Below are positions 15,351 to 47,500 of a stretch of DNA of 64,000 nt, in pieces (the first letter of the stretch is position 1; every line of letters starts with the position of its first letter). Both the position numbers and the translations under genes were made by a program. Source of the stretch: Candidatus Gastranaerophilales bacterium. GTDB taxonomy: Bacteria; Cyanobacteriota; Vampirovibrionia; Gastranaerophilales; Gastranaerophilaceae. The stretch lies in assembly GCA_944324395.1 (NCBI GenBank), contig CALUWC010000003.1, positions 1 through 64,000 on the forward strand. The letters are read 5' to 3'. Under the pieces are notes generated by a model, which saw nothing but the letters and a program-made list of their open reading frames with translations, was not told the origin of the DNA and made no database searches.

Positions 15351-15914
15351 ATGGATAAAGTAAATTTTACAGGTATAAGGAATATCGGTGCATATATGAA
15401 ACCTTTGCCGTATGCAATGCCTAATACCACAAAAACATACTTAATAGCTCAGTTGACCGACGATTTTGACGGAAAAGATCTAAGTGAATTTAAAGAAGCT
15501 GCAAAAAAATGTGAACAAATTACAGGCAAATGTGTATTCCCGGACGATAACAGATTTATACATATTATGACAAATGTTGTAAATAATGGTAAAGATATTC
15601 CGGCCTTAGCCGTAAATCATATTATAATTCCTGCAAGAAGAGAAACTCTGGCAGTGTTCAGTTTTATTGCTAAGTTAACAAGAAAAATTGCAAAAATGCC
15701 TGATGAAAAGTTTAAAATCTGTAAAGATTTCAAATTCGGGCCGGATGGCGACAGCTTTATATTTCCTGCCGGCAGGGTAAGCAATTTTAACCCTGAAAAT
15801 CCTGAAAAAACGAGAGAGTTTCTTGAGGAAATCTATTCTCCGGAATCTGACAGACAGGTTGCAAGGATGATAAATAGACATATCCAGATGGAAATGGAAG
15901 ATTATTTAAAATAA
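15351..15914 (+). CDS. Hypothetical protein with N-terminal VNFTGI motif (187 aa)
   Basis: CAAGGAGAT precedes the ATG. The product is soluble, about 187 residues, mixed alpha/beta, with no membrane segment or recognised domain. Its N-terminus MDKVNFTGIRNIGAY carries the short motif shared with several other small proteins in the window. The middle segment has ALAVNHIIIPARRETLAVF. It is divergent from tyrS and ends at a 36-bp perfect palindrome terminator. Function unknown. Confidence 0.75.
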   Translation: MDKVNFTGIRNIGAYMKPLPYAMPNTTKTYLIAQLTDDFDGKDLSEFKEAAKKCEQITGKCVFPDDNRFIHIMTNVVNNGKDIPALAVNHIIIPARRETLAVFSFIAKLTRKIAKMPDEKFKICKDFKFGPDGDSFIFPAGRVSNFNPENPEKTREFLEEIYSPESDRQVARMINRHIQMEMEDYLK

Positions 15915-17157: not shown

Positions 17158-17604
17158 TTATGCAAAATAGCTGGCATTAGTACCATTTGCATCAGGTGCT
17201 TTAGGAGCTTTTTTACCTTTGAATAGTTTTGCAATTGGTTCATATGTGTATTTACCGATAAAATTACCGGTAACAGCAACATAGTGACCTACTGTTTTCA
17301 TAAATCCCGGTTTTGCTTTTAATTCTTCTTTTGATAATTCTTTTATAGCTTTCGGGAATACTTTAGGTAATGCAACTAATACTGCTGCCAATGCAGCTAA
17401 GCCGATGATTGTACCTGCAACTTTTTTACCTGTGCTTGATTTTTTTTCAGCTTTGCCTGCATCATTATTTACAGATGCAGGAGAAGCAGCATTATTGCTT
17501 GCATTAGCTTCTGTTTTTGGTTTTGAAAATGCACCTTCACGTTCTAAAATATTTGCCGGACCATCTCCAAAACGGACGCTAGAAATAGGATTGACTGCTA
17601 ACAT
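17158..17604 (-). CDS. Small membrane protein with N-terminal ISSVRFG motif (148 aa)
   Basis: The N-terminus MLAVNPISSVRFGDG carries the short motif seen on other small proteins here. A disordered Ala/Asn/Lys-rich region follows, then one membrane segment at about residues 65-85 (VAGTIIGLAALAAVLVALP), and a lysine-rich C-terminus. No known domain. GGAGG precedes the ATG. It is divergent from the large TonB-like gene. Confidence 0.75.
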   Translation of the reverse strand: MLAVNPISSVRFGDGPANILEREGAFSKPKTEANASNNAASPASVNNDAGKAEKKSSTGKKVAGTIIGLAALAAVLVALPKVFPKAIKELSKEELKAKPGFMKTVGHYVAVTGNFIGKYTYEPIAKLFKGKKAPKAPDANGTNASYFA

Positions 17605-17774
17605 GAGAAAACCTCCTTACACACATTTTTCATTACACAACATATAAAACTCCTGATAGAATAATTTTGACTCATTAATCAAAATTTGCAAATATTTGTT
17701 ACAAAAGTTTACATATTTTTTGGAATATTTTCAATTGCTGTGTCATCTATATAGTTGTGGGAGGAAAATTTAAA

Positions 17775-20700
17775 ATGGCAAAAAAACAGGAAGCATTAAT
17801 TTATATAGAAAAGGATAATATTACAGAAGCAGAGTTTATGTCAAAAAGCTTTGTAAATAGAGGCATAAAAAATAGAGCTTATATAAATGCACTGGGTGCG
17901 GAACTTGTAATGAAATACCTTGTATCTGAAGGGTTTAACATTGAAGAGCTGCATAATATTCATTCTATTTCAAAAGTTCTTGAAAAAATTGATATCGCTG
18001 ATGTTTTGCTTCCTAATATCCATATTGATGTTCGTGTTGTTTTTGACGACAATCAGATTTTTATACCGAAAAGCCATTTTGATTTAGAAATCGTTCCGGA
18101 TATTTATCTTGTATTAAAGCTTGATGAAGAATTTGACCATGCCGAATTTTTAGGATATTTTAAACCGGAACAGATAAATAAAAAAGATGCCAATAAGGAT
18201 TATTATTTTATTGCCAAATCAAAACTTTCTTCGCCTGAAACCTTATCAAAATTTATAAAAGATTATCCCGGCAAAGTCTCAAGAAATCTTTCTGAAGAGG
18301 ACATGCTAAGAGGCAGAGAGTTGTCTGTCACACTTGCAGATCATAATATTACTGATGATGAGTTTAGAGAATTTCTTGAATTGCTTTTATTAAATGACAG
18401 TTTAAGAGAAAGTGTTTTGGAGTTTGATAATTTTGAAACTCTTGCATATAATGTAGCTTCAGGCTTGGGAAAATCACAGAGTATTGAACTTATTACCCCT
18501 GCTGTAGAAACACCTGCAGGAGAATCTTCTGATTCTGAAAACAGTACCGGTGAAGAATTATTGAACAATGAAGAAATTACATTAGCAGAACCTGAATTGG
18601 GTGAAGATGATATTTTATTAGATGAATCTTTCTTTGATGATGATGAAACGGAAAGTGACGAAAACAATAATCAATCTGACACAGATGAAGAAGAACAACA
18701 GCAGCCGGAAACTGATTCGGAAGATGTATCCGACAATTTAGAAAATATAGAAACAGATATTGAAGAAGATACATTGATTGAAGAAGAATCTATAGATTTG
18801 GGCGATGATTTGCTTGATGAAAATTTAACAGTTTCCGACGATATTGAAACGTCAACAGTGGAAGAAGATATTCAGACTGATATAGATACTTCAATAGAAG
18901 AATCTTCGCTTCCAATATTAGATGAAGAATCTGTAGATTTAGGAGAGGATTTACTTGATAACGATTTAACGGTTTCTGATGATATTGAAACGTCAACAGT
19001 AGAAGAAGATATTCAGACTGATATAGATACTTCAATAGAAGAATCTTCACTTCCAATATTAGATGAAGAATCTGTAGATTTAGGAGAGGATTTACTTGAT
19101 AACGATTTAACGGTTTCTGATGATATTGAAACGTCAACTATGGAAGAAGATATTCAAATTGATATGGATGCTTCTTTAGAAGAAACACCTTTGACTAATC
19201 TTGAAGAAGAAACTCTCAATTTTGGAGAAGATTTAGGGGAAGAAGAGATTCAGGAAATAGACTCTTTGCAAGAAGAAACTGATAATGAACCGTCTGAACC
19301 TGCGGAGGCCGGATCTGGTGTAAATCTGGCCGAATCGATTACGAATGCACTTAAAGATTCTTTAACCGGCACAGCTGCAGCAGCTGCCGGAGCTGTGAAG
19401 GCAGAAACGGGTAGTATTGCTGCCGGAGAAAAAGCATCGAATGAAGCTATGAAATTGGCTTCTGTAGCTGGAGATCTGGTAAATGATATAGTTAATAAAA
19501 ATATAGAACAGCAGCAAAAAAATCTTGATAAAATAGATTATGCAAAATCTACAACTGATGCAACAGCTGTTCCGGAACATATTTCTGCTCTTGCTCACGA
19601 TTTGGCGGCAGCCAAGCTTGAAATTAATCTTGAAGCTGAAGAATCAGGACAATTTGATTCTCCAAAAGATTTATCCGATCTGAAACCAATAGAAAATCAA
19701 CACGAAGAAGTTGAATTCCAGCAGGAAACGATTGAACTGGGAAATATGGAAACCGTTCAAACAGAAGAATTTACTGAAGATACCGGAAGTATAGTCAACC
19801 TTGATAATCTTAAGAATATTGATTCTCCTACAAAGCCTGTTGATAATCTTGATGAGATGCTCAAAGAGCCTGATGTTGAAAAAATGGATTTGCCAAATCT
19901 TTCTTCTTTTGAAATAAACGAAGATGGAACATCATCATTTGATAACTTTGTAACTGATATAAACTACAATAATGAAGAAGATCATCTTGTTGATTTGAAC
20001 ATGCCGTCAAATGAATTTAAAATTGATGATGATAATGATGGATTGGATTTTTCAATAAATACAGAAGATGATGCTGATTTATCAGTTGACAAGTCTATTT
20101 TAGGAATTTCTGATACAATTATCGACCAATCTCAGAAAGTTGAAGAATATGACAATCCTGATTTTAGCAATACTTTATCTGAATCAGATCTGGCATTAGA
20201 TACAGATTTTGATACAACAATGCCTGCTCAGGATATTCAGTCTGATAGCAATTTGAATATTGTTGACGAACAATTACCGGAAAGTAATTTGAATAATTCA
20301 ACTCCTGAATACAGTGATGTTGATGATTTTTCTGAACTGTTATCTGATGATAACGGCTTATCAGATGGATTCATGCAAAATAATGCAGATGAGTCAGCTC
20401 TGCAGTCTGAAGAAGATACCATGCCGGAGAATCCTTCTGTTATTCCTGCAGAAGAAGATAATCAGTCTGAGCAGGAGCAGGATTGGCTGAATGATACAAA
20501 TTATGACAATCTTCAGGATATTGAAATCGAACAGCAGGAATCTCCTTCTGCAGGAAGTGAAATTTCTGATGAAGAACTAATTACAGAACCTGACGCTGCT
20601 CCTGCAAAGGCATTTGCAGTAATCGAGAATTCTACTGTTATAAGTGACAGAACATTTAATGTCGGAGAAATTCATATTGATATAAACAATCCGCAAGCTT

Positions 20701-21509
20701 CTCAATTTAACGGTGCGGAAAATGAATCATTAGAAGATTTGTATGATCCTAATTCTAAAGTTCCCGGCGGTTCTTTGCTACAACAGCCTGGAAGACTTGG
20801 TTCATCTTCCGGTGCTCCAAGTGCAGGATTGGGTATCGGTCTTAAGCTTATCGGCGGATTAGTAGTGCTGGCTATTGTTTGTGCAATAGGTTTTGGTGCT
20901 GCGAAATTATTTAAAGCTCCAACCGAAGAGGCTCCGCAGCCGATTACTGATGATATAACACCTGCAAGTTCTGATAACGGAGTTGCAGAATCTAATACCT
21001 TGAATGTTAATCCTGATAACGTAGTTAAAATGGATAACAATACAAATGCACTTGCCTCAACCAATACTGCTCCTGCAGCAAAAACTAAGCCGGCAGCAAG
21101 TGCAAAGACTCAGCAGCAGACATCTTCTCTTACACCTGTTCAGAAGAAATCTATGGCTGCAACTACATTTATTGAAGTAAGAAAGTTAAGCTGGGAAGTT
21201 CCTGATTATGTATCATACAATTCTCAGTTCAAACAATACTTCCAGGCTGCTGGAAAGAGTTTGAAATTGTCTTTAACCAGCGACTTGCTGCTGGCTACTG
21301 ATTATGCTTATTCTAATGAGATAAGAGTAAGCGTAACTTTTGACAAAGACGGAACTTTTAAAACTGCTCAAATAGTTACATCAAGCGGCTCAACTCAAAT
21401 AGATAATATTGTGTTACAAACTGTTAACCAAACTTTAAAAGTCCTTAAAGCCCCTCATAGTGTGGGTAATGACGAAAGCACAACGGCAATACTTAAAATT
21501 TATCTGTAA
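17775..21509 (+). CDS. Giant acidic membrane protein with a TonB-like C-terminal domain (1244 aa)
   Basis: Start ATG 17775 follows GGAGG by 10 bases. Residues 1-230 form a well-packed alpha/beta domain of unknown family (MAKKQEALIYIEKDN...). Residues about 230-1000 are very acidic, Asp/Glu/Ser-rich and probably disordered, with a 47-residue unit repeated three times (336-476) and an alanine-rich helix around 535-570. One membrane segment lies at about 1018-1045 (LKLIGGLVVLAIVCAIGFG). After a Pro/Ala/Thr linker, the last ~100 residues resemble the TonB C-terminal fold (NEIRVSVTFDKDGTFKTAQI...IDNIVLQTVNQTL). The order puts the N-terminal domain and acidic arm on one side of the membrane and the TonB-like end on the other. 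It is followed after 38 bases by a sigma-like gene. Confidence 0.8.
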   Translation: MAKKQEALIYIEKDNITEAEFMSKSFVNRGIKNRAYINALGAELVMKYLVSEGFNIEELHNIHSISKVLEKIDIADVLLPNIHIDVRVVFDDNQIFIPKSHFDLEIVPDIYLVLKLDEEFDHAEFLGYFKPEQINKKDANKDYYFIAKSKLSSPETLSKFIKDYPGKVSRNLSEEDMLRGRELSVTLADHNITDDEFREFLELLLLNDSLRESVLEFDNFETLAYNVASGLGKSQSIELITPAVETPAGESSDSENSTGEELLNNEEITLAEPELGEDDILLDESFFDDDETESDENNNQSDTDEEEQQQPETDSEDVSDNLENIETDIEEDTLIEEESIDLGDDLLDENLTVSDDIETSTVEEDIQTDIDTSIEESSLPILDEESVDLGEDLLDNDLTVSDDIETSTVEEDIQTDIDTSIEESSLPILDEESVDLGEDLLDNDLTVSDDIETSTMEEDIQIDMDASLEETPLTNLEEETLNFGEDLGEEEIQEIDSLQEETDNEPSEPAEAGSGVNLAESITNALKDSLTGTAAAAAGAVKAETGSIAAGEKASNEAMKLASVAGDLVNDIVNKNIEQQQKNLDKIDYAKSTTDATAVPEHISALAHDLAAAKLEINLEAEESGQFDSPKDLSDLKPIENQHEEVEFQQETIELGNMETVQTEEFTEDTGSIVNLDNLKNIDSPTKPVDNLDEMLKEPDVEKMDLPNLSSFEINEDGTSSFDNFVTDINYNNEEDHLVDLNMPSNEFKIDDDNDGLDFSINTEDDADLSVDKSILGISDTIIDQSQKVEEYDNPDFSNTLSESDLALDTDFDTTMPAQDIQSDSNLNIVDEQLPESNLNNSTPEYSDVDDFSELLSDDNGLSDGFMQNNADESALQSEEDTMPENPSVIPAEEDNQSEQEQDWLNDTNYDNLQDIEIEQQESPSAGSEISDEELITEPDAAPAKAFAVIENSTVISDRTFNVGEIHIDINNPQASQFNGAENESLEDLYDPNSKVPGGSLLQQPGRLGSSSGAPSAGLGIGLKLIGGLVVLAIVCAIGFGAAKLFKAPTEEAPQPITDDITPASSDNGVAESNTLNVNPDNVVKMDNNTNALASTNTAPAAKTKPAASAKTQQQTSSLTPVQKKSMAATTFIEVRKLSWEVPDYVSYNSQFKQYFQAAGKSLKLSLTSDLLLATDYAYSNEIRVSVTFDKDGTFKTAQIVTSSGSTQIDNIVLQTVNQTLKVLKAPHSVGNDESTTAILKIYL
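18780..19202 (+). repeat. Three tandem 141-bp units inside the TonB-like gene
   Basis: Units start at 18780, 18921 and 19062, each encoding 47 residues with the core DLTVSDDIETSTVEED. Copies 1 and 2 and the first half of copy 3 are nearly identical at the DNA level; the end of copy 3 diverges. The exact period keeps the reading frame. Confidence 0.9.
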
Positions 21510-21547
21510 ATATGATATAATACCGGTAAAGTAGAGGAAGCTAGATT

Positions 21548-22108
21548 GTGGAATTAACACAAGACAAGATTGATTTAATCAGTAGAATAATCAAAAATGA
21601 TCGTAAATACCCTAATAACGAGGACTTATACGACGATTTTTTCAATGAAACCTGCAAACGCTCGGTTAATATTCTCAATGCAATCGAAACTGAATCTACG
21701 TTGGAAGCATATCTCAAACGTATTGTAACAACATCTATTATAAATGTTCTAAAAGATTCAGGAAGGTTAAGAAGGACAAGAGCCGGTTATATGTCGACCA
21801 AAGAAGTCGCTCTTAGTCCTGCAGACTCTACTGATTATTCTCAGATCGAAATCAATTATGCTAATATTAAAATTCCTGAAAATCCTGAAGAAATAGTTAT
21901 CCAAAAAGAAATCCTGGAATTTGTAGCTGATACAATACGAAAAATAGACGAAGATAACCCGGATAAAGACTATTTACATATTTATACTTTGCGTTATGAT
22001 AAAGGCATGACACAGAAAGAAATTTCTGAAGAACTTGGTATCTCTCAATCTGAAATCTCAAAAAGATTATATAAATTGATGGATAAAGTCAGAGATGTTA
22101 TTGAATAA
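21548..22108 (+). CDS. Sigma-70-like RNA polymerase sigma factor (186 aa)
   Basis: A GTG start has AGAGGAAG 10 bases upstream. The N-terminal half resembles sigma region 2 (LEAYLKRIVTTSIINVLKDS, residues about 58-77). The C-terminal half has a clear region 4 helix-turn-helix: HIYTLRYDKGMTQKEISEEL, then GISQSEISKRLYKLMDKV. Region 3 is absent, as in ECF-type factors. There is no obvious anti-sigma gene next to it. It sits between a TonB-like membrane protein and a signalling-type ATPase, so it may be the transcription output of that locus. Confidence 0.82.
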   Translation: MELTQDKIDLISRIIKNDRKYPNNEDLYDDFFNETCKRSVNILNAIETESTLEAYLKRIVTTSIINVLKDSGRLRRTRAGYMSTKEVALSPADSTDYSQIEINYANIKIPENPEEIVIQKEILEFVADTIRKIDEDNPDKDYLHIYTLRYDKGMTQKEISEELGISQSEISKRLYKLMDKVRDVIE

Positions 22109-22121
22109 CTAATTCTAAACT

Positions 22122-25100
22122 ATGAAATGTCCGGTTTGTAAAAAAAATATTTCAGATACGGCATTAAAATGCCCATATTGCAAAACTCGTACAGGTTTAT
22201 TATGCTCTCATTGCAATACAATTAATCCTGTCGGAAACCTCGTTTGCCAAAAATGCGGACAAGAATTGTTAAAAATTTGCCCGCACTGTCACAGCGTAAA
22301 CTTTCCGATTGCTGCAAAGTGCAGAAAATGCGGTTCTCCGTTAGGGAAAAAAAATGTAAAACAAAACCAGAATAATGATAAAGATAAGAAGAATAATAAA
22401 ACAATTAAACTTGAATTTAATCCGAAATATTCTTCTCAAAATCAGGCATTTGAAATGTTATCTGACGGGCTACGTTCAAAAGATACTAAAATATTTTCAA
22501 TAACAGGTGAAAAAGGTATCGGCAAAAGTAATCTGTTAAAACAGGTTATTAAAAATCTCGAACCGGACAGACTGGAGTGGTGTATCGGAAAATGTACTCC
22601 ATTAACACAAGTTACCCCGGGCGGAGTTATTCAGGATATGCTTTTGAATTTGTTCAAGCTTCCGAATTTTTATCTTAACAATGAGGAGTTGAAAAATGAT
22701 GCACTCCAATTTTTCAGCAATGAATTCAGATTTCTTGGAGCAGCTGATGTTGCTGATTTTCTAAACTTTCTGTATAACTCAAAAGATGGGAATTATGAAG
22801 ATATAATTATAAATAAAAAACATACGTACGATATTTTAAATAAAATTTTTGATGCATTCTGCCGCACAGGAAGATTTGTATTTGTAGTTGATAATTTTGA
22901 TTTTATTGACGGGTTTTCCATTGAATTTTTAACCAATTTCATGAGCCGGGAGAACAATTGGAGAAATTTGAAATTTATTGCAATATACAATGAGCCGAAA
23001 CCTATCAGCAGTTTCTTCGGATTTGAATCAAAAGAGATGAAGGCTTATTTGGATATTAATCTTACTGCAGTTCCAACAAAAGAATTAGAACAGCAGCTCC
23101 AATTAACAGGAGATGCTGGCACTTACGTTTCAAACAGAGAAAAAGAAGTCATTTTTGAAAAATGTAAAGGTAATCCGGCATTTGTTGAGCAGGCTGTAAG
23201 TTATTGTTTTGATTGCCAGATATCTGATAAAGCATTTTTAATGCCTAATAATTTTTCAGGTTTAATAAAAGAACGTTTGGAAACTTTGAAAAAAATAAAT
23301 AAAGATGCCCATAAAATGCTTTGTGGTGCTGCAATATTAGGCGACAAATTAAATCTTGCACTTTTGAAAGAAATTTTCGGTTATAAAAACAAAGAATTTA
23401 ATGACATTATGTCTTATCTTGTTAAAGCTAAATTTGTAAGACCATATAATGAAGTTTTTTATGAGTTTAATAATTTACTTTTATGGGAAACAGTATTAAA
23501 GAATATCCAGCAAGATATATCTTTTGAAGATCTTAACGTAAAAATAGGGAAAGCTATCAGCGTATTTAATTTAAATACAAATGCTACAATGGCAATGATT
23601 GCACATAATTTGAAAGAAAATCGTATGGCATTTGATATCTGGACCAAGACTACCAGACTGGCTGCTTATATAGGCGATATCAATCTTTATGTAATTGCAC
23701 AGAAACAGTGTTTGGCTTTATTGAATGAGTTTAATGAAAACGAAACATTAAATATACGATTTAATATAAGTGAACGTCTTGGAAAATTATTAACAGAATA
23801 CGACCCGGAAGAAGCGATTGAATATCTGCCCGATGCAATTCAAAATGCGAGAGCAAGTAATAATGAAACCAAAGAAATAGAATTACTCGGTTACTTAGCT
23901 CAATGCTGCCAAAAAACGGAAAATTATTTTGGTAATATTGAATGTGCAGATAATGTATTAAAAAAATTAACAGCAGGCGATGAACTTGAAGCAGCTCTTA
24001 TCAAAGCTTCAAAGTTATCGGCACTGATAAATATAGGTAATAGCGGAGAGGTTATAAATCTTATTGATAATGAAATCATGCCTGTATTGAATACGAATTT
24101 ATCAAAGCCGAGATTAGATAAAACAATACCATTAGGATTTGTTTATGATACTTGGCTCAGGGTTTATTTATATCTTGGCATGGCCTTGGCTCTTCAGGGC
24201 AATGACAGATCATTTGAAATTCTTGCTGCCCTTTTTGAAATATTGGAAAAAAATAAAATTGATGATGAAGGTTTAATATGTAAAGCTAAGCTTACTTTGG
24301 CTTATGCAAACACAATGAAAGGGAATTTTAAAACTTCACAGGAAGTTTTATCAGATATAGCAAATATTGTTGGAGCCGAATATTTATTAAATCCTGCAAA
24401 TTTGAATTCAGCCAGGGCAGATATAATAAATTATTATAATATAATAAATATTTTGAATAATTTCTTTAGAAAAGATTTTAATAATATTAAAGAATCTCTG
24501 TTCAATGCTGCAAAATTTGCAAGTGACACAAGCAACGAGTTTTTGAAAAATATTTTCAGAACTTTTCTGGGTAAATACTTTTATGATACAAAACAAGCAA
24601 AACATGCCATAGAAGTTTATAATGAGCAAATTACATATTTTGCAAATAATAAAATGGCACTTGGAGCATTATTAACGTGGTATTTTATATCAGAAGCAAC
24701 AATGGTAACGGAGGATCCGAAAAACGCTATAGATATTGCACTTCAGACACTTGATATTGCTCAAAATCCCAGAATTAATAATTCATTTTTTATAGTTTTA
24801 CTTAAAATTCTTTTAGCAAAAGCATATATGGAAATATCAGATTATGAAACTGCAAAAATCAATCTGGAATCAGGTATGGTTCTGGCTAAAAAATACAGTA
24901 TGAACGATTTATTATCTAAAATATATTTGCTATATGGCAAATATTATCAGGATTTGGGTTCTATAAATTCTCAAAATCAACAGGAATACCTGAAAGGTTC
25001 AGCCAAAATGTATGACAATGCTATGAACATTGTTTTACAAGATACTTGTAATCCTTATATGAGAGACAGAATAGAACAACAAAAAAATCTTCTGCTTTCT

Positions 25101-25130
25101 TATTGCGAAATACATAATTTAAATCTTTAA
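22122..25130 (+). CDS. Zinc-ribbon, AAA/STAND-type ATPase with TPR-like C-terminus (1002 aa)
   Basis: The first 75 residues hold repeated Cys pairs of zinc ribbons (CPVCKKN, CPYCKTR, CSHCNTI, CQKCGQE, CPHCHSV, CRKCGSP). After a Lys/Asn linker comes a P-loop ATPase domain: Walker A GEKGIGKS near 130 and a Walker B-like FVFVVDNFDFIDG near 255. The rest (about 430-1000) is all-helical with TPR-like repeats (e.g. AKAYMEISDYETAKINLESG). This plan matches STAND-type regulatory ATPases and large signalling proteins. It is 13 bases after the sigma-like gene, so they are cotranscribed. Ligand and target are unknown. Confidence 0.82.
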   Translation: MKCPVCKKNISDTALKCPYCKTRTGLLCSHCNTINPVGNLVCQKCGQELLKICPHCHSVNFPIAAKCRKCGSPLGKKNVKQNQNNDKDKKNNKTIKLEFNPKYSSQNQAFEMLSDGLRSKDTKIFSITGEKGIGKSNLLKQVIKNLEPDRLEWCIGKCTPLTQVTPGGVIQDMLLNLFKLPNFYLNNEELKNDALQFFSNEFRFLGAADVADFLNFLYNSKDGNYEDIIINKKHTYDILNKIFDAFCRTGRFVFVVDNFDFIDGFSIEFLTNFMSRENNWRNLKFIAIYNEPKPISSFFGFESKEMKAYLDINLTAVPTKELEQQLQLTGDAGTYVSNREKEVIFEKCKGNPAFVEQAVSYCFDCQISDKAFLMPNNFSGLIKERLETLKKINKDAHKMLCGAAILGDKLNLALLKEIFGYKNKEFNDIMSYLVKAKFVRPYNEVFYEFNNLLLWETVLKNIQQDISFEDLNVKIGKAISVFNLNTNATMAMIAHNLKENRMAFDIWTKTTRLAAYIGDINLYVIAQKQCLALLNEFNENETLNIRFNISERLGKLLTEYDPEEAIEYLPDAIQNARASNNETKEIELLGYLAQCCQKTENYFGNIECADNVLKKLTAGDELEAALIKASKLSALINIGNSGEVINLIDNEIMPVLNTNLSKPRLDKTIPLGFVYDTWLRVYLYLGMALALQGNDRSFEILAALFEILEKNKIDDEGLICKAKLTLAYANTMKGNFKTSQEVLSDIANIVGAEYLLNPANLNSARADIINYYNIINILNNFFRKDFNNIKESLFNAAKFASDTSNEFLKNIFRTFLGKYFYDTKQAKHAIEVYNEQITYFANNKMALGALLTWYFISEATMVTEDPKNAIDIALQTLDIAQNPRINNSFFIVLLKILLAKAYMEISDYETAKINLESGMVLAKKYSMNDLLSKIYLLYGKYYQDLGSINSQNQQEYLKGSAKMYDNAMNIVLQDTCNPYMRDRIEQQKNLLLSYCEIHNLNL

Positions 25131-25257
25131 TAATACTATGAAATATTATTATAATATATCTTTATAATTCTTTATAAGTATTCAATTTTGTAACGAAAAA
25201 ATATATAATCTTTACAAGAAAACATGTTTATTCTAAAAATAAGTTATAAATAAGGAA

Positions 25258-25905
25258 ATGAAATTGCTAAATAATTTTGAAAGTTTTGATAATTCAGAAA
25301 CTGCAACCAAAAAGGATATTGTTATCCAGGAGAGAGTAGAGCTTGTTTCATCTCACATGTACAAGCAGTTTTTGGATTACCAGCATTCAACGGTAAATAC
25401 TAACGATATTTTTTCAAGAATGATTGACTGTCTTGAATTGGTGACAAATAACCTGAAACAGTCATTTTCATCACGTGGTGTTACGACTCAGAATATTTAT
25501 GTTGATGCTGATGCTTTAAAATCAACTGCCGTTGTCAATATTTTATGGCATAAAATGAGTTTTACAACCAGATGCAATTTTCAGCCGCAAGCGTTGTACA
25601 GAGAGGATGGCAGACATATTTTTTCAAACAGAATTATGGCAATAAGAGGCAATTATCACGATATAATTAAAGAAGCTAAGGATAGAGAAGATGAAATGGT
25701 AAAGCTTTTGGAAAATGAAATTGCTTCTCTTTATGTTCCGCCTGATCAAAACCAGAAATGTATATTTAAAATAAAACATACAGGTCAGGAGTTCACACTG
25801 AATCAAACAGATGCCCCGAGAGAATTTGTTCTGAAGGTTGTAGAAACAGTATGCGGCGGTGGTTTGTATCATCAGGACGGATCAGTTAAAACATTTATCG
25901 TATAA
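25258..25905 (+). CDS. Hypothetical protein (215 aa)
   Basis: The ATG at 25258 has AAGGA only one base away; a TTG at 25264 would have better spacing, so the true start may be two codons downstream. The protein is soluble and mixed alpha/beta, with a helical N-terminal half and the C-terminal segment CIFKIKHTGQEFTLNQTDAP. No known domain. It follows the ATPase by 127 AT-rich bases and may belong to the same locus. Confidence 0.72.
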   Translation: MKLLNNFESFDNSETATKKDIVIQERVELVSSHMYKQFLDYQHSTVNTNDIFSRMIDCLELVTNNLKQSFSSRGVTTQNIYVDADALKSTAVVNILWHKMSFTTRCNFQPQALYREDGRHIFSNRIMAIRGNYHDIIKEAKDREDEMVKLLENEIASLYVPPDQNQKCIFKIKHTGQEFTLNQTDAPREFVLKVVETVCGGGLYHQDGSVKTFIV

Positions 25906-25970
25906 ATAGTAAACAATTGACTAAATGTAAAAAATAGCTATTATTATATAATAAGGTTGTTAGGTTAGAT

Positions 25971-26228
25971 ATGAGATTAGTAGAAAAATTAAAAGAATAC
26001 GAAAATCAGTATTTGTTTATAAGATGGGCGACCGGCGGAGAATATGGCAAATTGATGTATGCCGGCGATGATTTTATAGAATTTAATATTATTGATGTTG
26101 AAACAATGAGCTATAGAGAAACTATGCTGATTTATGCTCCGTTAATTCTTGAAGTATCAATAGGCGGAGCTGATATAGCAAGGATTGTTGCTGAAGTATC
26201 TTCCCAGATGACCATGCACGAAAATTAG
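25971..26228 (+). CDS. Small conserved-looking protein, possible Sm-like fold (85 aa)
   Basis: The compact 85-residue product reads as a short N-terminal helix (LVEKLKEYENQ) followed by strands FIRWATGGEYGKLMYAGDDF, IEFNIIDV and PLILEVSIGGADIARIV. The helix, the glycine-rich strand pair and the D-D-F-I-E-F phrase recall the Sm1 motif of Hfq/Lsm proteins. This is a pattern-level guess. AGGTTAGAT precedes the ATG. It follows the TonB-like/sigma/ATPase locus. Confidence 0.65.
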   Translation: MRLVEKLKEYENQYLFIRWATGGEYGKLMYAGDDFIEFNIIDVETMSYRETMLIYAPLILEVSIGGADIARIVAEVSSQMTMHEN

Positions 26229-26871: not shown

Positions 26872-27201
26872 TTATTTTGAGATTTTAAATTCATTTCTGT
26901 ATGCATCAAGCAATTGTGTTGCTTCTTCATAGGAATGAGTTTCTTGATATTTGTCAAAGACCATATTCAATTGAGCAACCTGAATAGGATTTTTCAACAA
27001 AATATTCATATCGTCTTCAATGGAATCTGTAGAAACTTGAGATTTACCTAAAGATGCAGCAGGCATATTAGTCAAATCTTTAATTTCTTTTGACTCTTGA
27101 GTGACAGGGGTTTCCGGAGTTGTTGCAGGAGTATCTGCTGCCGGTTTTTGGATACCTGTAAAGTTTAAACTGTTGATATTTTTGTTACCTATTTCTCTCA
27201 T
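26872..27201 (-). CDS. Small protein with N-terminal INSLNFTGI motif (109 aa)
   Basis: The N-terminus MREIGNKNINSLNFTGI carries the clearest copy of the shared motif. A disordered Pro/Thr region follows (about 20-45), then a helical C-terminus with NPIQVAQLNMVFDKYQETHS. No known domain or membrane segment. AAGGTG precedes the ATG. Function unknown. Confidence 0.75.
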   Translation of the reverse strand: MREIGNKNINSLNFTGIQKPAADTPATTPETPVTQESKEIKDLTNMPAASLGKSQVSTDSIEDDMNILLKNPIQVAQLNMVFDKYQETHSYEEATQLLDAYRNEFKISK

Positions 27202-38513: not shown

Positions 38514-41500
38514 TTATAAAGATTTAATTACTTTTCTTTGAGCCGGACCTTGAACTTTTTGATTGTCGTATTTATGTTCTTTGCCTAAAGCCCATCTAAA
38601 TCCTGCGGTCAGGACAATACCGGTTCTGCCGCCGTTTCTAATCATAGTTTGGAAGAATGCAGTGAATCTTTCCCCCCATGTTTTTTGAACACCAACTCCG
38701 TATTCAACATACGGTTTTGTTGACAATTGCGGTAATCTTACATCTTGAGCAATTACATCTGTTTTGTCCATAATGCTCCAAACCATATTTACACCCAAGT
38801 ATGGCTGCCAGCCGTTTTTCAGGTTAGCGATAAATTTAACACCCGGAGCAATTGTAATTGCATGTAACGGATCAGAATCAATTCTGACACCTGCTGCGTT
38901 TGTATAATCAAACGTATTAGCAAATGTATAACCTAAGAACAATGAAGGCTGAACGATAAATTTACCGTCTTTCATTTCCCAGTTATATCCTGTTTTGGAA
39001 GCAACACCTGCTGTAAGCATTGCAAAATGATCTGTTCCGTATTGAGTGAACGCATCACCAGCACTGGCACCTGCAGAAACTGTCAAACCGGTGAAGAAGT
39101 TCCCCTTGTACAATGTACCGGTTACACCTAAAGCTCCGCCTTGCTGGTTCATACTTACACCGTTAAATGACATATGAGAACCGTTGTAGCCGACGAATGT
39201 TGACAGAACACCTTTAAATCCATGTCCTATATCAACCAGATTAGAATCTCCGCCGTACATAGCTCCGTACGCTACATTTGAAACTCCAAGCCCGCCTCTT
39301 AAATTAACCTGTTCAAATGTCGTATACGGTTGAATCCACATAGCATTTGAAGTTTCAGGAAGATTGCTTCTTCTATATGCAGGGATATCATTTATTGCAT
39401 ACCGGTTAGAATTTTCTGCTGTTAATCTCATCATATAAGGATATTTTGTATATCTATCCATATGGTAGAAACCGGCATTTAAAGTCTGTAATTGAGTTAA
39501 ATAACCACCCAATTGAGTTGCAACAGGGGATGCCATAACAGCAGGGTTAACTGAACCAATATCAGGAGTTGAACCGCCTTGTCTTGCAAACAACAAGTTA
39601 CCATTATTATACGATACATCATACTTTTGAATTGGTCCCATAACAGTTGTTACACCTTGATCAAGAGCAACATGATTTGCTAAATCTCCATATGCAACTT
39701 GAACTGAAGTATTATTAAGCAAAGCATCACTTACCACATTCAAGCTATCCTGATCAAGGATTAAATTACCATTGCCATATACCCTGCCTGCACCGACCTT
39801 ATCCGCAATTTCATTTTTCAAATCAATATCAATATCCAAATCTACATCACCTAATAAGGTCAAACTGTCAAAGTATAGATTTTCAATACTTGCAGGACTT
39901 GGATCTGTTGAATAGCTACCATTACCAAGGTCAACTACAGATGTATTTTGTAAATTAATACCTGTTCCTGCAGCAAATTGAGCATCTGAAAGATTTCCTA
40001 ATGTTGCGCCTGCTGCCATTGCAAAAACACCTTCATTTACATTCAAGCTGCCGTTAAAATTATTATTTCCCCGGAATACCAATGCTCCTGATCCGTTTTT
40101 ATCAACAGTACCTGTACCGTTAATTTTAGATAATGAAGCATTGTTATCAGCATTAACAACCAATGTACCGTTTTGATTTATATTAGTTGTACCTGAAATA
40201 TATTTTGTATTATCTGAATTAAATATTACACTTCCGCTATTGATATTAGCAGTACCTGTGAAGTTAGAGTTATCACCGGTCAGAGTCATATCATTTGAAC
40301 CGTTTTTATTTAAAGTACCGCTTCCGCTGAAGGAACCTGTTGTAATATCACTACGGTTATTGGTAATAGTAACAGTATTACCACTGCCAATATTTGTATT
40401 ACCTAAAATGTATGTATCACTTGAGGAAGATTGAGTATAATTCATATCCCCATCCGCTATATTTAAATTACCGGTAAAGTCGTCGTTTTTACCTGACAAA
40501 TTTAAATCATTATTCCCTGATTTATTAACAGTACCGTTACCTGCAAGGCCGCTTGAAACTGAAACATCTTTATTAGCGGCAACAATATTAACAACTGTAT
40601 CTTCACCTGCTGCATAAATATCGTTTTTACCGTTTGCATCTCTGTTACCTGAAAAATCAGTATCAATAATTGTCATATCATCAGCGGTATAAATTGCACC
40701 ACCAAGACCGTTTGAAGTATTATTTGTTAATTCAGAATTGTTGATAATGAAAGATTCTGAATTTGTATTATTAATAACTCCGCCGTTTCCGCCTGAAGAA
40801 CTTGATGTAATATTTACATTATCTAAATTAACTGTAGAGCTTCCGTTATTTGCAATAACAACAGAGCCGCCATTATCAGAATGAGCATCCTGTATTGTCA
40901 AATCTTTAACCGTTAAAGCTGTATCATCCTGAGTAACTTCAAAGAATGACTTTGTATTATTACCGGAAATTACAGTATTTCCGTTAGCCTCGCCTTTTAC
41001 AATAAATGAACCTGATGCGGTTGTTCCTAAGCTTTTACCTATAGTATACGGATCAGGATCATCTGCATGGAATTGGAAACCTCTGTCACCACTCTGATTA
41101 TTCATTGCCTTTAATGAATTTTCATTAGTTGCTTTGATTGCGGTAAGAATAATATCCTGTCCGCCTTGAGCAATAGTTACGCGATATTCATAAGCGGAAG
41201 TTGCCCAAAAATCTAAACTATCATCATTATCTAATGTTAAATTACCGCCAAGAACATTAATATTATAGCTTTCTCCAAGACCGTTATCTGTTTTTTGATC
41301 ATTTAAGTTAATATCTTTCAGTTCCAATTCCAAAGCTCCGCCATTACCTCCCTTTGAAACTAATTTATCAGAGGTTCGAGTTGGTAGAGTCAAATCAACA
41401 TCAATTTTGATTTTGGAATCTGAAGTTGTTAAGTTGTCAAAAGTTGTAGTATGTGTACCGTTTTCAGTTAAGTCAATAACAGAATTCGTAATTGTATAAT

Positions 41501-44500
41501 TTCCGTTATATGTATAATCACTATCGGCAAGTTTAATTGTTGAACTGTCAAATGATACTTGATTTCCTGTATAATTTGCAAGATCACCTTCTAAAGTATA
41601 AGTACCTCCAGTTTGGGAATTGAAATTAATCTGAGCATTGCTTGCACCGTTACCAAAACCTACAACGGAATTTGGCCCAACTGTAAGATTGCTGTTAATA
41701 GCTGCTGTATAATCAAGAATTGCAGAATTATTAGCAATCATATTAAAATCAAATGCGTTTGTAGAATCACCAATAATATTCAAGGTTCCCTGATTAGCAT
41801 TAGCAGTAAATGAAGTTTCTACAGCATTATCATTGGCATCAAATGTTAATACAGCATCTCCACCTTTATTTAAAACACCTGAACCTGAAACGTTTGCTAA
41901 AGTATCTTCAATACCGTCAGCAACATTGTAATTTAATTTTGCACCTGAATTTATGTCTGTTTTGCCTGCGATATAAGATGTATTATTATCCTTTGTAAAT
42001 GTAACATTACCGCTGTTGATATTTAATGCACCTTCAAAACCACGATTGTCACCGCTTAAAGTAAGAGTACCCTCACCGTTTTTTATAACAGAACCGCTGC
42101 CTAAATCTCTTCCTTCTTCATCAATATATGCCGTCAGATTTGAAACATTTACACTGTCAGAAGTTGAATTACTAATATATAACTCAGCATCTTGAGCGAT
42201 TGCATAAGAATCTGCATTGATAAATTCATTGTCATTACCTGAGGTATAATAAGATAATCTGCCCTCACCTATCATTACAGAACCTGTGAATTGAGAATTA
42301 TTACCAACAAGGTTAAGATTTCCTCCGCCAAGTTTTGATAAAGTACCTTCGCCGGATATTGCGGTTAGGTTATCATCACTATCTGTGCCAACAGAATATT
42401 CTAATGTACCGCCATGTTCAATAACGGTATTTCCGCTTACATAATCGCCGTTGCCTGAGGTATATGCTAATGTACCGTTTTCAATAGTTGTTTTACCTGT
42501 AAAATTATTAGTACCTACAAGTTGAATTTTACCATCACCTGTTTTAACAAAGTATGCATCCTCGTCGCCTGTGATATTACCTATTGTTTGACCTGTAATG
42601 TCAGCATTTTCTGAATCCTTTGCAGCAACATCAGCAACTAAAGAAGCCTCAGATGCAATAGTTGTTGCTCCGCTGAAATATTTATTATCATTAGAATCAG
42701 CTTTATATGTCAAAGTTCCGGCATTAATTTTTGCTGAGCCTTTAAAATCGGAGTTATCTCCTGATAATACAAGTTCTCCGCCGCCTGATTTTTGAACTAT
42801 GGAACCTTCAACACCTGAGATATTTGAAGCTGTTTGTTTTGATGTATCACTTGAAGAATCTCTGCTTATATCAAATATCAAAGAAGTTCCTTCTGCAGTT
42901 AATTCTGTAGAACCTCCGAGATATTTATCAGTAGTTGAATCTGCAAGATAATATAAAGTACCGCTGTTGATTTGGGTTATACCGCCAAATCCGGAGTTAT
43001 CTCCGGCCAAATTCAACTGACCTGCTCCGTTTTTGAGAACAGTACCTGAGCCATTTTTACCTGCTGCCACATTTTGCAGAGTTTGAGTAACCACATTCTC
43101 AGAGTTGTCAATTGTCATATCTAAAACAGCATTTTTATTAACTTTAACTCCGCCTGTTACGAAGGTATCATCAGTACTGTCCGCTGTATAAGCTAATTTT
43201 CCCGCAGTAACATCAAGGGTACCGTTAAAACCTGAATTTGAGCCGTTCAAATTCAAAGTTCCGACTCCTGATTTTGCGAATGTTGTACCTTCTTCACCAG
43301 CAATACCGCTATTTATAAGACTTTCATTCTCTTTAGTAGTTACAAAATCAACATTTGCTGTTCCTGCAAGATAGATATCGTTTTGTTGTCCGTTTTTGTG
43401 TGTGTTGAGAACAGTTTCTCCGCTAACAGCATCTAAACCGAAAATTGAATCTTCAATCGTCATATCAGCAGATGTATAAATTGCACCGCCAAGTCCACCT
43501 GACTTGTTACCTGAAACGATTGCATATTTAATAGTCATACCTTCAGAAGTATTATAGATAGCACCTCCGTTTGCAGATGCCATGTTGCCTGAAATTACGG
43601 AAGTATCAATTGTAAATTCATTACTTTTAATATTTGCAATTACACCGCCATTTCCTGCCCGAACTTCATTGTTAACGAAATCAACATTTGTTAATTTAAC
43701 CGTTGCGTTTTGATTCTTTGCATAAATTGCAGAACCGTCCTGGATACCGCTTTTTTCATCAGCATACCTTTTTGCATCCTGTACGGATACATTAGACATT
43801 TCAAGATTGGTAGCATTAACAAGCTCAAACATAGAACCGTTAGTTTGTCCGTTAGGTGTAAAGTTACTGATATCGATTTCATAGCCGTCCTCGATTGTTC
43901 CATCCGGATTTTTAATTTGAATTTCTTTTGGAGCTGCAATTGATTCTCCTTTATACGTCCAGTTCCCCTTTTCATCTTTCTTCAGACTATCATCGTCTTT
44001 CAAAAGCTGCAGCGGTTTTAATTGACCTGACAGGATACTCTTTTCTTCATCTACCAGAGCTCCGACAACAGTGAAATTACCTTTGGCTGTTGTATCTAAA
44101 TCTCTATATATATTATAATTATTTTTATCTTTCTCATTATTGATTACAATAAAACTGAAGCCTCTGTTACCCTGATACTGGTTTAAATCTCTCAACGTAT
44201 CCGTACTTGAAACACCTTGCGGTTCAATTTCAATACTATCAGCTTCACGATTAGTTTGTGCTGATTTAACCCCGTATTCGTAAATATTAGTTGCCCAGCT
44301 CAATATTTCAGCATTATTCGTTTCTGCAACCTTCAAATTATTGTTTCCTTTGAATACTAGAATTTGCCCTTTGGATAAAGAACCGTCGCTTTCTGTGCGG
44401 AATATTCCGTTATCATCAGTTATAAACAATTTTGTTATATCTACAATTCCGCTGCCTGAATTTGCCGTAATCGTATCAGCATAAGGTCTAATATTATTCT

Positions 44501-47500
44501 TTTCATCTAAAACAAGATTAACATCAAGTCCCAGTCCTGAATGTGAACCGTCTTCAGCGTTATTAAAATTCAGTTCATTAAATATATAATTATCACCTGC
44601 AATTCTGTTAGACAAATCTAAAACAGAATTGTTAAAGGTATAGTTATTACTTGTAAAGTCGTATTCTTTAGCTCCTTCATCATGGCCTGTTATTGCAGTC
44701 CCTGGTAAAGACTCATACAAAGTTACATTTGAAGAATTGAATATGATGTTATCTTTTATTATATCTGTTCTGTTAGTCAGTGCATTTGTATGTAATATAT
44801 AATTTGCACTGCTAAATATAATATTATTTGCAGCAGTACCCTTTGAGGTTAACCAGTCTGTGTCAATATTATGGGTGGTTGATAACCCGTTACCGCTTAT
44901 AGAAAGCGTACCGCCGTTGAGTAAATCAACATTTGCAAAGTCTTTGTCAAAATATGTTCCGTTAGTATCGGTATATTCAAAAGTTGATGGGGAATCAGCA
45001 CCGTCATTTGCACCATTAACAGTAACGTGAGCATTTGCACCAAAGAATGAATTGTCGGCTGTTTTTTCAAAACTTACCGTACCGTTAAAAATGCTTAAAT
45101 TTCCGACAAATTCGCTATTGTCGTTAGCTCCGGTTAATGAAACCTTGCCCGTTCCGTCTTTGATAATAGTACCTGAGCCTGTTGTTGCACCTGCTAATCG
45201 TGAAGATATAGTTATATCATTTGTATTATTGATAATAAATGAACTATTGTCAGCTACAACAATATTACCGCTATTAATATTATGGTTATTCAAATTAACA
45301 ATAGTTCCTGAAGCAATGTTCAGTCCTACACTATCCAGAGCATAAGAATCATTACTATCACCGTTGATTGTCAATTCACCTGAATTTACATTAACGGTAG
45401 ATTTAGAAACAAGGTTGTCAAATATTACATTTCCTCTGGTATTAACAGCACCGCCCTGACCGGTAATGACATCAGCTACCGTCAAACTATGATTTGCTGC
45501 AGATGTTAAATTCAAGCTGCCGTTATTTGTAATAACAGAGTCTGTTGTATTTGAATTTTGCAATGTATAATCAGAATTTGATGTAATCGTAAGTTGGCCG
45601 CCCTGAGCATTATAGATATAATTTGCTGAATTATCGCTAAACACAGCATCTGTAACAGTTGCTGAACCGAGGTTATAAATTGCAGAACCGTTATCAGCTT
45701 CGTTATTAGTAAATGTAACATTGTCAAGAGTCAGGTTTTTGCTGTTTGTGTCGTTATAAACAGCACCGCCTAAGGTGGCACTGTTAGTATTAAATATCAC
45801 ATTATTAATATAAACAGTTCCTCCGTTTGCATAAATAGCCCCGCCGTTAACTGCCTTATTAGATGTTAATGTTGAACTTGCTAATGTCATTTCTCCGCCT
45901 GAAACAGATAATGCTCCGCCGTTTGAATTTGCTGCAGAGTTATTTTGCAAAGTTGAATTTGTTATATTAACTATAGAATTTGCATTTGTTTGATTAACAA
46001 CTGCTCCGCCTTTATCTGATGCGGCATTTTGAATAGTAATATCTTTGATATTCAAAGTCGTATTATTCACAACTTCAAACATTGATAATCCGGTAGTTTC
46101 ACCTTCTTTTTCATAACCGATAATAGTATCATCTCTATCTTGAGTACGTCCGTTAATATTCAAAGTGCCTTCACGAGTAGTATCAAGAGCCTGACTGATA
46201 TAATAATCTGTGCTGCTGCCAACAAGGTGGAAAGTTCTTTCACCATCTATAGTATGATTCAAATTATATAAAGTTTTAGCATCAGTATAATCTGTTGCGG
46301 TAAGTGTAAGTTTGTTACCTTCAGTTACTGTAACTGTATATTCATAAAGATTGGTTGTTAATGTATCTGTGAAATCAGTATTAGCGAAAGTCAAACCGCT
46401 CAATACATCATAAGTTTTTTCAGACCATGCACCTCTATCTGAATTCAAATTGAATACGTTGATGCTGTTCTCTGTCAATGCAACCTGAGCATTGCCTGAC
46501 TTTGCGGTGAGTTTATCAAATCCGTCAGTGAAATCAAAATCAAGTATAATATTATTAGTGCCTGTTGTTGTAAGATTTGCAATCGTTGTTGTTGTAATAT
46601 TTTCGTTTGCAAGGCTCAAGGTTGAATTATCAAGTGTGTAATTTCCGTTCAATATAACATTATTTTCACCGTTGCCGATATTTACTGAAGCAGTGTTGAA
46701 TGAAGTTGTGTTGCTTGCGGCATTGGCTAAATCAGAAGAAATATTATATGTTCCGTTCGTAAAGTTAATTCTGCCGTTTGAACTGTTATTATCAAACTTA
46801 AATGCAGATTGCCTATTGATATTATAGATATCATCTGTACTTGCTGAGTAGTTCAAAGTTGAACCGCCCGCAACATTAGAACTAAAAGCAAATGAGCCGT
46901 CAGAATTTTCTGCCTGCTCATCAGCATTAACTGTTAAAGTTCCTCCGTTAACATCTGCTGTTCCGGTAAAATTATCCATATTAACGGTTAAATTACCTGT
47001 ACCCTGCTTATCCAAAGTTCCGATACCTGACAAAGATGATATTTTTTCATCCCCACTCATATTTGTTGAATAAATCAGTTTAGAGTCTTTATTAGCAATA
47101 TTTACCCTGCCTGCAACAAATGAATTTGAATCGGATTTTGTGAATCCTAAATTTCCGCCGGAAATAAGAGTTTCACCTGTGAAACTTGAGTTATTGACTC
47201 CATCTGATACCGTAACTAATGAATCTTTTACTCCGGATATTTCTAATGTTGCACCATCAGAGCCTATTAAATTATTATTCAATGCAAATGCCTTCTTATC
47301 TTCAGTAGACTGATTAGCAACACCAAATGTGGCATTGTCAGCTATGGTAATAGAATTATAGAGCATTTTATCACTACTATCAGTGGCAGTATCGTCAGTA
47401 TTAGCTACAAATAGCAATTTCCCGCCATTAACAAATGTAGCAACATTATTATCACGTCCGGAACCCGCATACCAATCTCCGGTGATTTGTAATGTACCTT

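What the first reader, a model, noticed from the sequence alone, without database searches (positions are those of the whole stretch)
17775..26228. Candidate new membrane-to-transcription system: TonB-like arm, sigma factor and zinc-ribbon ATPase
Seen in order on one strand: a 1244-aa protein with an unknown N-terminal domain, a ~770-residue acidic arm, one membrane segment and a TonB-like C-terminus; a 186-aa sigma-70-like factor; a 1002-aa protein with zinc ribbons, P-loop ATPase and TPR-like repeats; then 215- and 85-aa unknowns. The sigma and ATPase genes are 13 bases apart. Inference: an envelope signal is passed through the TonB-like protein to the ATPase and to transcription by the sigma factor. 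No anti-sigma or partner exporter is present.
Basis: partly seen in the sequence, partly recalled or inferred. Interest (0 to 1): 0.72.

Follow-up and report, generated by a model that had tools for sequence, protein, structure and literature searches.

The report
Envelope-to-gene switch in gut bacteria
Nearly all sampled members of a family of gut bacteria related to cyanobacteria share a three-gene unit in which a long membrane protein, probably a brake on a gene-switching sigma factor, sits beside that sigma factor and a partner ATPase, which suggests how these little-studied cells could sense trouble at their surface.

Summary
The genes are real and correctly placed. The window comes from Candidatus Gastranaerophilales. 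The TonB-like gene, sigma gene and zinc-ribbon ATPase gene stand together on one strand in 80 of 80 loci and in 73 of 85 family genomes; six more are cut at contig ends. The 215- and 85-aa genes are neighbours, not parts. The sigma passes NCBI's ECF superfamily cut-off. The 'unknown' N-terminus is Pfam DUF1822, a cyanobacterial domain often encoded beside ECF-like sigma genes, followed by a three-helix domain whose model matches anti-sigma domains best (RsiW, MucA; Z 6-7). Sequence methods do not confirm this. Upstream lies a strongly conserved ECF-like promoter (GGAAT-N15-GTCAT) behind an RpaB-box-like repeat; its exact form occurs essentially only at this operon, suggesting autoregulation. 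ATPase role, signal and wider regulon remain unknown. I call it a new variant of a known kind: an ECF sigma with a membrane anti-sigma of new architecture.

The parts
17647..17771 (+). conserved promoter block of the operon
   Evidence: found in 75/75 loci with usable upstream sequence; consensus TtgTTACAAAa.TTTACA..aa.ttTGGAATATTTTt.......GTGTcATCT
17698..17715 (+). HLR1-like direct repeat GTTACAAAAGTTTACATA, candidate site for an RpaB-type response regulator
   Evidence: TTACA-N5-TTACA in 70/75 loci, 23 nt before GGAAT in 68 of them; strict HLR1 consensus in 53/75; consensus from PMC11633204
17722..17747 (+). ECF-like core promoter: -35 GGAAT, 15-nt spacer, -10 GTCAT(C)
   Evidence: spacer 15 in 71/71 loci matched by the strict search; exact motif at this promoter in 44 of 56 genomes, one extra hit that lies in coding sequence, reversed-pattern control 0
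17775..21509 (+). DUF1822 / anti-sigma-like / acidic arm / TM / TonB_C membrane protein, proposed anti-sigma factor (1244 aa)
17802..18242 (+). DUF1822 N-terminal half (residues 10-156)
   Evidence: Pfam PF08852 37.8 bits, cut-off 25; 55/55 orthologs match
18294..18479 (+). anti-sigma-like three-helix domain (residues 174-235)
   Evidence: AF2 pLDDT 89; best VIA-align matches RsiW Z 6.8, MucA Z 6.6 and 6.1; Pfam and HHalign negative
18495..20813 (+). acidic, unconserved arm (residues 241-1013)
   Evidence: 29% D/E, 3% K/R over 241-1020; whole proteins range 810-1376 aa
20847..20903 (+). single membrane segment (residues 1025-1043)
   Evidence: hydropathy peak 2.55; one hydrophobic segment in 73 of 76 orthologs
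21165..21494 (+). TonB/TolA-type C-terminal domain (residues 1131-1240)
   Evidence: TonB_2 and TonB_C match in 29/29 orthologs; conserved island
21548..22108 (+). ECF-like sigma factor
   Evidence: TIGR02937 74.4 bits, cut-off 42.9; Sigma70_r4 above cut-off; invariant NEDL..DF.NE
22122..25130 (+). zinc-ribbon / P-loop ATPase / TPR-like protein (1002 aa); Walker A GEKGIGKS at 22506-22529
   Evidence: DZR above cut-off; AAA_16, KAP_NTPase and TPR_MalT matches; 85/85 family genomes, 0 of 109 other genomes of the phylum at E 1e-20

Best explanation
The three genes form one autoregulated ECF signalling operon. The 186-aa protein is the ECF sigma factor. The 1244-aa protein is its membrane-tethered anti-sigma factor: the cytoplasmic head (DUF1822 plus a three-helix anti-sigma-like domain) holds the sigma, a long disordered acidic arm and one membrane helix connect the head to the periplasm, and a TonB/TolA-type domain there contacts an envelope partner. 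A change at the envelope would loosen the head's grip by pulling, partner binding or proteolysis; the freed sigma then transcribes from GGAAT-N15-GTCAT, first of all its own operon. The zinc-ribbon ATPase with TPR-like repeats is an obligate cytoplasmic partner, most likely a STAND-like switch that helps to load or release the sigma or head. Shown: gene linkage, domain assignments for DUF1822, sigma and TonB_C, fold resemblance to anti-sigma domains, promoter conservation. Inferred: sigma binding, topology, release step, autoregulation, ATPase role.
For: (1) TonB-like, sigma and ATPase genes contiguous and co-oriented in 80/80 loci, with gaps of 2-51 and -11 to 20 nt; all three families retained even in five genomes of two genera where they are dispersed. 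(2) Sigma: TIGR02937 above cut-off, invariant region-2.2-like residues. (3) N-terminus is DUF1822 in 55/55 orthologs. In Cyanobacteria DUF1822 genes lie beside sigma genes: 11 of 20 upstream neighbours match TIGR02937, and the association with ECF sigma genes is noted in PMC8195603. (4) Residues 166-240 modelled alone (pLDDT 89): the top three VIA-align entries are anti-sigma domains RsiW and MucA (Z 6.8, 6.6, 6.1; rmsd 2.1-2.8 over 54-61 residues), a fourth, RslA, at rank 7; the same domains headed the matches to that region in the longer model. (5) No signal peptide seen by eye, one TM, C-terminal TonB domain: the N-in single-pass layout of RseA-type proteins. (6) Deeply conserved ECF-like promoter with fixed 15-nt spacer, exact motif unique to this operon in each genome. 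(7) In genera g14 and g15 the anti-sigma-like domain is not detected, the promoter motif is absent, and in g14 the sigma is degenerate.
Against: No sequence method recognises the anti-sigma domain: Pfam none, PDB profile search none, HHalign to RseA probability 0.9%, home-made profile alignment matched by 10 of 300 shuffles. Foldseek E-values are above 1, and Z 6-7 for a small helical bundle can be a common arrangement (the tool's own warning). The fourth helix that class I anti-sigma domains use to bind sigma region 2 was not identified; conservation ends at residue 229. In genera g11 and g19 the head is encoded apart from the arm-TM-TonB part, so covalent tethering is not obligatory. The promoter is GGAAT/GTCAT, not the classic GGAAC/CGT. 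No interaction or expression was measured.
Confidence: 0.62

Rival explanations
1. The DUF1822 core, not the three-helix segment, is what binds or regulates the sigma; the anti-sigma-like helices are a coincidental three-helix bundle. The protein still acts on the sigma, by a new interface.
For: DUF1822 is encoded beside sigma genes in Cyanobacteria although no copy of the three-helix domain was found there. The DUF1822 core is the best conserved part of the protein. Sequence methods do not support an anti-sigma domain.
Against: The fold matches single out anti-sigma domains above the other chains, and the helical segment is itself conserved, with D189 invariant.
Confidence: 0.2
2. One reading: the TonB-like protein passes an envelope signal to the ATPase, which activates the sigma; there is no anti-sigma, and the head is an ATPase-binding module.
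For: The ATPase is as universal as the other two genes (85/85 family genomes) and lies next to the sigma gene.
Against: The anti-sigma-like fold and the long-standing pairing of DUF1822 with sigma genes, without this ATPase, in Cyanobacteria point to the head acting on the sigma.
Confidence: 0.1
3. The large protein is an ordinary TonB/TolA energy transducer that happens to share an operon with a sigma factor.
For: TonB_2/TonB_C match in 29/29 orthologs; the genome has ExbB/ExbD-type proteins.
Against: A separate TonB-domain protein (419 aa) sits directly beside ExbB and two ExbD-like genes on contig C13. No TonB-dependent receptor barrel was found in the genome. TonB proteins carry no 1000-residue cytoplasmic part, and the head is the best conserved region.
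Confidence: 0.06

Closest known systems
RpoE-RseA (E. coli) and AlgU-MucA (P. aeruginosa): ECF sigma with membrane-bound class I anti-sigma
   Same: ECF-like sigma co-encoded with a single-pass membrane protein whose cytoplasmic part has an anti-sigma-like fold (closest solved folds: MucA and RsiW); likely autoregulated promoter.
   Different: The anti-sigma gene comes first; the head carries an extra DUF1822 domain; there is a 600-1100-residue acidic arm; the periplasmic part is a TonB/TolA-type domain; a zinc-ribbon ATPase is fixed in the operon; no detectable sequence similarity to RseA.
Cyanobacterial DUF1822 - ECF sigma - CHAT/caspase (EACC2) neighbourhoods (PMC8195603)
   Same: DUF1822 encoded next to an ECF-like sigma gene, often with a third signalling gene (CHAT in 10 and CHASE2 in 7 of 17 downstream neighbours).
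   Different: There the sigma gene precedes DUF1822, DUF1822 is a stand-alone protein of about 320-470 aa with its own C-terminal half, and the third protein is a CHAT/CHASE2 protein rather than a zinc-ribbon ATPase; no TonB domain.
PUMA3 / VreA-VreI-VreR (P. aeruginosa cell-surface signalling; PMC2729926)
   Same: An ECF sigma system with a protein that carries a TolA/TonB-type C-terminal domain and no outer-membrane barrel.
   Different: In PUMA3 the TolA/TonB-like domain is on a separate, mostly soluble periplasmic protein with an STN domain, and the anti-sigma VreR is another protein; here it is the far end of the proposed anti-sigma itself.
FecI-FecR cell-surface signalling
   Same: Envelope-to-sigma signalling with TonB machinery in the picture (general knowledge).
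   Different: No TonB-dependent receptor barrel found in this genome.

Membership tests
ECF (group IV) sigma factor | sigma2 and sigma4 only, short linker (<50 residues; PMC8103513) | tested here: met
   TIGR02937 74.4 bits over residues 21-183, cut-off 42.9; Sigma70_r4 above cut-off; the gap-rich linker lies at about residues 80-113
ECF (group IV) sigma factor | -35 with AAC and -10 with CGT (PMC8103513, early definition) | tested here: inconclusive
   conserved promoter GGAAT-N15-GTCAT, mostly TGTCAT: related to but not the classic boxes; use by this sigma not shown
[quoted passage not shown]
   adjacent gene in 80/80 loci; its anti-sigma nature rests on fold resemblance
ECF (group IV) sigma factor | positive autoregulation | not testable with these tools
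   exact motif lies upstream of the operon and almost nowhere else, but no expression data
class I anti-sigma factor (ASDI; PMC7406223) | N-terminal three-helix bundle | tested here: met
   helices 174-188, 194-206, 208-235; top VIA-align matches RsiW and MucA, Z 6-7. Fold level only
class I anti-sigma factor (ASDI; PMC7406223) | fourth helix, after a linker, that binds sigma2 | tested here: inconclusive
   helix 3 is long (28 residues) and no separate conserved helix follows residue 229
class I anti-sigma factor (ASDI; PMC7406223) | recognition by anti-sigma sequence profiles | tested here: not met
   no Pfam anti-sigma family; HHalign to RseA 0.9%. Hence not filed as a member; 'works like' only
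class I anti-sigma factor (ASDI; PMC7406223) | Hx3Cx2C zinc motif (about 56% of members, not obligatory) | tested here: not met
   no such motif in the sequences of the domain
DUF1822 (PF08852) | score above Pfam gathering cut-off | tested here: met
   37.8 bits, cut-off 25, profile positions 2-155 of 370; 55/55 orthologs at E <= 10
DUF1822 (PF08852) | full-length domain (370 positions) | tested here: not met
   only the N-terminal part of the profile matches; the three-helix domain replaces the cyanobacterial C-terminal part
TonB / TolA C-terminal domain | score above Pfam cut-off | tested here: met
   TonB_2 27.3 (cut-off 22), TonB_C 25.3 (cut-off 24.6) on the domain alone; 29/29 orthologs match
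TonB energy transducer | works with TonB-dependent receptors | tested here: not met
   no TonB-dependent receptor barrel match in the 99% complete genome, while three controls ring
STAND / AAA ATPase with zinc ribbons and TPR | P-loop NTPase core, zinc ribbon, TPR | tested here: inconclusive
   DZR 30.5 (cut-off 27.3) and KAP_NTPase 23.1 (cut-off 20) pass; AAA_16 31.1 (cut-off 32.6), nSTAND_NTPase5 and TPR models fall short; Walker A GEKGIGKS with G132, G134, K135 invariant
PD-(D/E)XK nuclease fold (DUF1822 core) | fold and catalytic D ... (D/E)XK | tested here: inconclusive
   Hjc-type matches at Z about 8 over residues 27-167, at the noise level for such models; no (D/E)XK seen by eye in the orthologs (IPK in its place) or in cyanobacterial DUF1822

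The most novel reading that the evidence does not exclude
DUF1822 marks a general sigma-regulator class across the Cyanobacteriota/Melainabacteria group: a sigma factor, a DUF1822 protein and a third signalling protein (CHAT/CHASE2 in photosynthetic Cyanobacteria, zinc-ribbon ATPase in Gastranaerophilales). In the gut lineage the DUF1822 protein has gained an anti-sigma domain, a giant acidic tether and a TonB-type periplasmic end and has become a covalent line from the envelope to the sigma factor, mechanically or proteolytically triggered.
Probability: 0.35. Interest if true: 0.78.

Novelty: new variant of a known kind. Interest (0 to 1): 0.6.

Why it matters
Gastranaerophilales are common but little-studied gut bacteria, sister to Cyanobacteria, and no paper in the searched library holds both 'Melainabacteria' and 'anti-sigma', or 'Gastranaerophilales' and 'sigma factor'. 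A signalling operon found in nearly every sampled genome of the family, with a predicted promoter, gives a direct way into their envelope biology. It also gives DUF1822, a domain of unknown function widespread in Cyanobacteria, a testable role as a sigma-factor regulator.

Tried and rejected
215-aa and 85-aa genes as parts: rejected, found behind the ATPase only in close relatives. Regulon search in the own genome: 18 further sites at up to 2 mismatches (reversed-pattern control 3), but nearly all lie inside ORFs, only L174 and L181 are intergenic; exact motif in 56 genomes: 45 hits, of which 44 at this operon and one in coding sequence. So no wider regulon was defined. HLR1 boxes genome-wide: not clearly enriched over control (67 against 48 at 1 mismatch). 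Nuclease reading of DUF1822: Z about 8 only and no (D/E)XK. Nucleotide-cyclase insert in the longer ATPase orthologs: no such domain. Sequence proof of the anti-sigma domain by Pfam, PDB profile and HHalign: all negative, home-made profile alignment weak.
Full report
OBSERVATION. The five ORFs are at the stated coordinates, on one strand. The genome is a 1.89-Mb, 99% complete assembly; orthologous loci are titled Candidatus Gastranaerophilales or Melainabacteria, with some generic or misassigned MAG names, an order of the Cyanobacteriota/Melainabacteria group. In 80 of 80 orthologous loci the DUF1822/TonB-like gene, the sigma gene and the ATPase gene stand in this order on one strand, with gaps of 2-51 and -11 to 20 nt. 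In a sample of 194 genomes of the phylum, 85 belong to the family. The ATPase is found in 85 of 85, the TonB-like head in 84 and the sigma in 82 at the thresholds used. I counted linkage by hand from those coordinates: 73 of 85 contiguous, 6 cut by contig ends, 5 (genera g17, g18) with the three genes dispersed but retained, and 1 with the ATPase only. Outside the family the ATPase is absent at E 1e-20 (0 of 109 genomes). The 215- and 85-aa genes, tyrS, cysE, aroQ and the kinase are neighbours only in closer relatives.

THE SIGMA. The 186-aa protein scores 74.4 bits against NCBI's ECF superfamily model (cut-off 42.9) and passes Pfam region 4. No structural model of the sigma was made.

THE LARGE PROTEIN. 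Conservation falls into islands: residues 4-174, 184-229 and 1131-1240; everything between 241 and about 1013 is an unconserved acidic arm, and whole proteins range from 810 to 1376 aa. The first island is Pfam DUF1822 (37.8 bits, cut-off 25; 55 of 55 orthologs), missed when the whole protein was scanned. The last is a TonB/TolA-type domain (29 of 29 orthologs). Between arm and TonB domain lies one hydrophobic segment (73 of 76 orthologs have exactly one).

AN ANTI-SIGMA-LIKE FOLD. An AlphaFold2 model of residues 1-245 is confident (pLDDT 88.8, pTM 0.83). VIA-align gave, for residues 174-245, RsiW (Z 6.9) and MucA (Z 5.9) as best matches. Residues 166-240 predicted alone (pLDDT 89.3) gave the same: the top three entries are RsiW (Z 6.8, 2.1 A over 61), MucA (Z 6.6, 2.3 A over 54) and MucA again (Z 6.1), with RslA at rank 7. 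Foldseek superposes a MucA chain at 1.0 A over 50 columns but with E above 1. These are anti-sigma proteins from Firmicutes, Proteobacteria and Actinobacteria. The limits are real: Z 6-7 for a small bundle can be a common arrangement, Pfam and the PDB profile search see nothing, HHalign to five RseA proteins gives 0.9% although in the expected register, and a home-made profile alignment is matched by 10 of 300 shuffles. I therefore say 'works like an anti-sigma factor' with confidence about 0.6 and do not file it as a member of the class I family.

THE CYANOBACTERIAL LINK. DUF1822 occurs in many Cyanobacteria. In 20 loci examined, 11 upstream neighbours match the ECF superfamily model and several of the rest look like divergent sigma factors by eye. 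Downstream, 10 of 17 neighbours carry CHAT and 7 CHASE2. PMC8195603 mentions this DUF1822/ECF pairing in passing. I found no copy of the three-helix domain there, so DUF1822 itself may matter for sigma control: the main rival.

THE PROMOTER. Upstream of the operon lies a block conserved in 75 of 75 usable loci (32 after removing near-copies): an HLR1-like repeat TTACA-N5-TTACA, then TGGAATATTTT-n-GTGTCATCT. In the 71 loci matched by a strict search the spacer between GGAAT and the -10 is always 15 nt. In 56 genomes the exact pattern occurs 45 times, 44 at this operon and once in coding sequence; the reversed control gives none. This resembles ECF promoters (AAC at -35, CGT at -10, autoregulation; PMC8103513) but is not identical. 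That the sigma uses it is an inference, helped by co-variation: genera g14 and g15 lack the motif and the anti-sigma-like domain, and g14 has degenerate sigmas.

HOW IT LIKELY WORKS. Sigma held at the inner face of the membrane by the DUF1822/anti-sigma-like head; the acidic arm and membrane helix lead to a periplasmic TonB-type domain that contacts an envelope partner; a change there releases the sigma, which amplifies its own operon. The genome has a separate TonB-domain protein beside ExbB and two ExbD-like genes and no TonB-dependent receptor barrel, so this TonB-type domain is more likely a sensor or anchor than a transport energiser. In genera g11 and g19 the head is a separate protein, so the head-to-membrane link can be non-covalent. 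The ATPase (zinc ribbons, P-loop, TPR-like) is a constant partner whose step is not known.

NOVELTY. ECF sigma plus membrane anti-sigma is a known kind. The combination of DUF1822, anti-sigma-like fold, giant acidic tether and TonB-type end, with a fixed ATPase gene, was not found in the papers searched; the nearest idea is VreA of PUMA3. Most subscription papers are outside that library.

Noticed in passing
Suggests that the RpaB-HLR1 circuit may survive in non-photosynthetic relatives.
   Followed up: partly
L138 8997-10817; also L128 9842-11269, L139 8897-10642: In genus g14 the sigma protein is 476-607 aa; in L138 an acidic insert of about 400 residues, like the arm of the TonB-like protein, separates region 2 from region 4.
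   Followed up: partly
L140 7094-9975, L141 6955-9877, L136 3723-7975: DUF1822/anti-sigma-like head and arm-TM-TonB part are two adjacent genes in genera g11 and g19, a gene fission (or two) inside the arm.
   Followed up: partly
L211 133-2948 (G000 contig C13): ExbB-like, two ExbD-like and a 419-aa TonB-domain protein in one cluster, in a genome without a detectable TonB-dependent receptor barrel.
   Followed up: partly
window 38514-49256 (-): 3580-aa ORF, the largest in the window; not examined.
   Followed up: no
window 15351-15914, 17158-17604, 26872-27201: Small proteins of otherwise different sequence with a short N-terminal motif (NFTGI or SVRFGD-like).
   Followed up: no
window 18790-19137 region (residues about 340-500 of the large protein): Near-perfect tandem repeats of about 48 residues (VDLGEDLLDNDLTVSDDIETSTVEEDIQTDIDTSIEESSLPILDEES) inside the acidic arm.
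   Followed up: no
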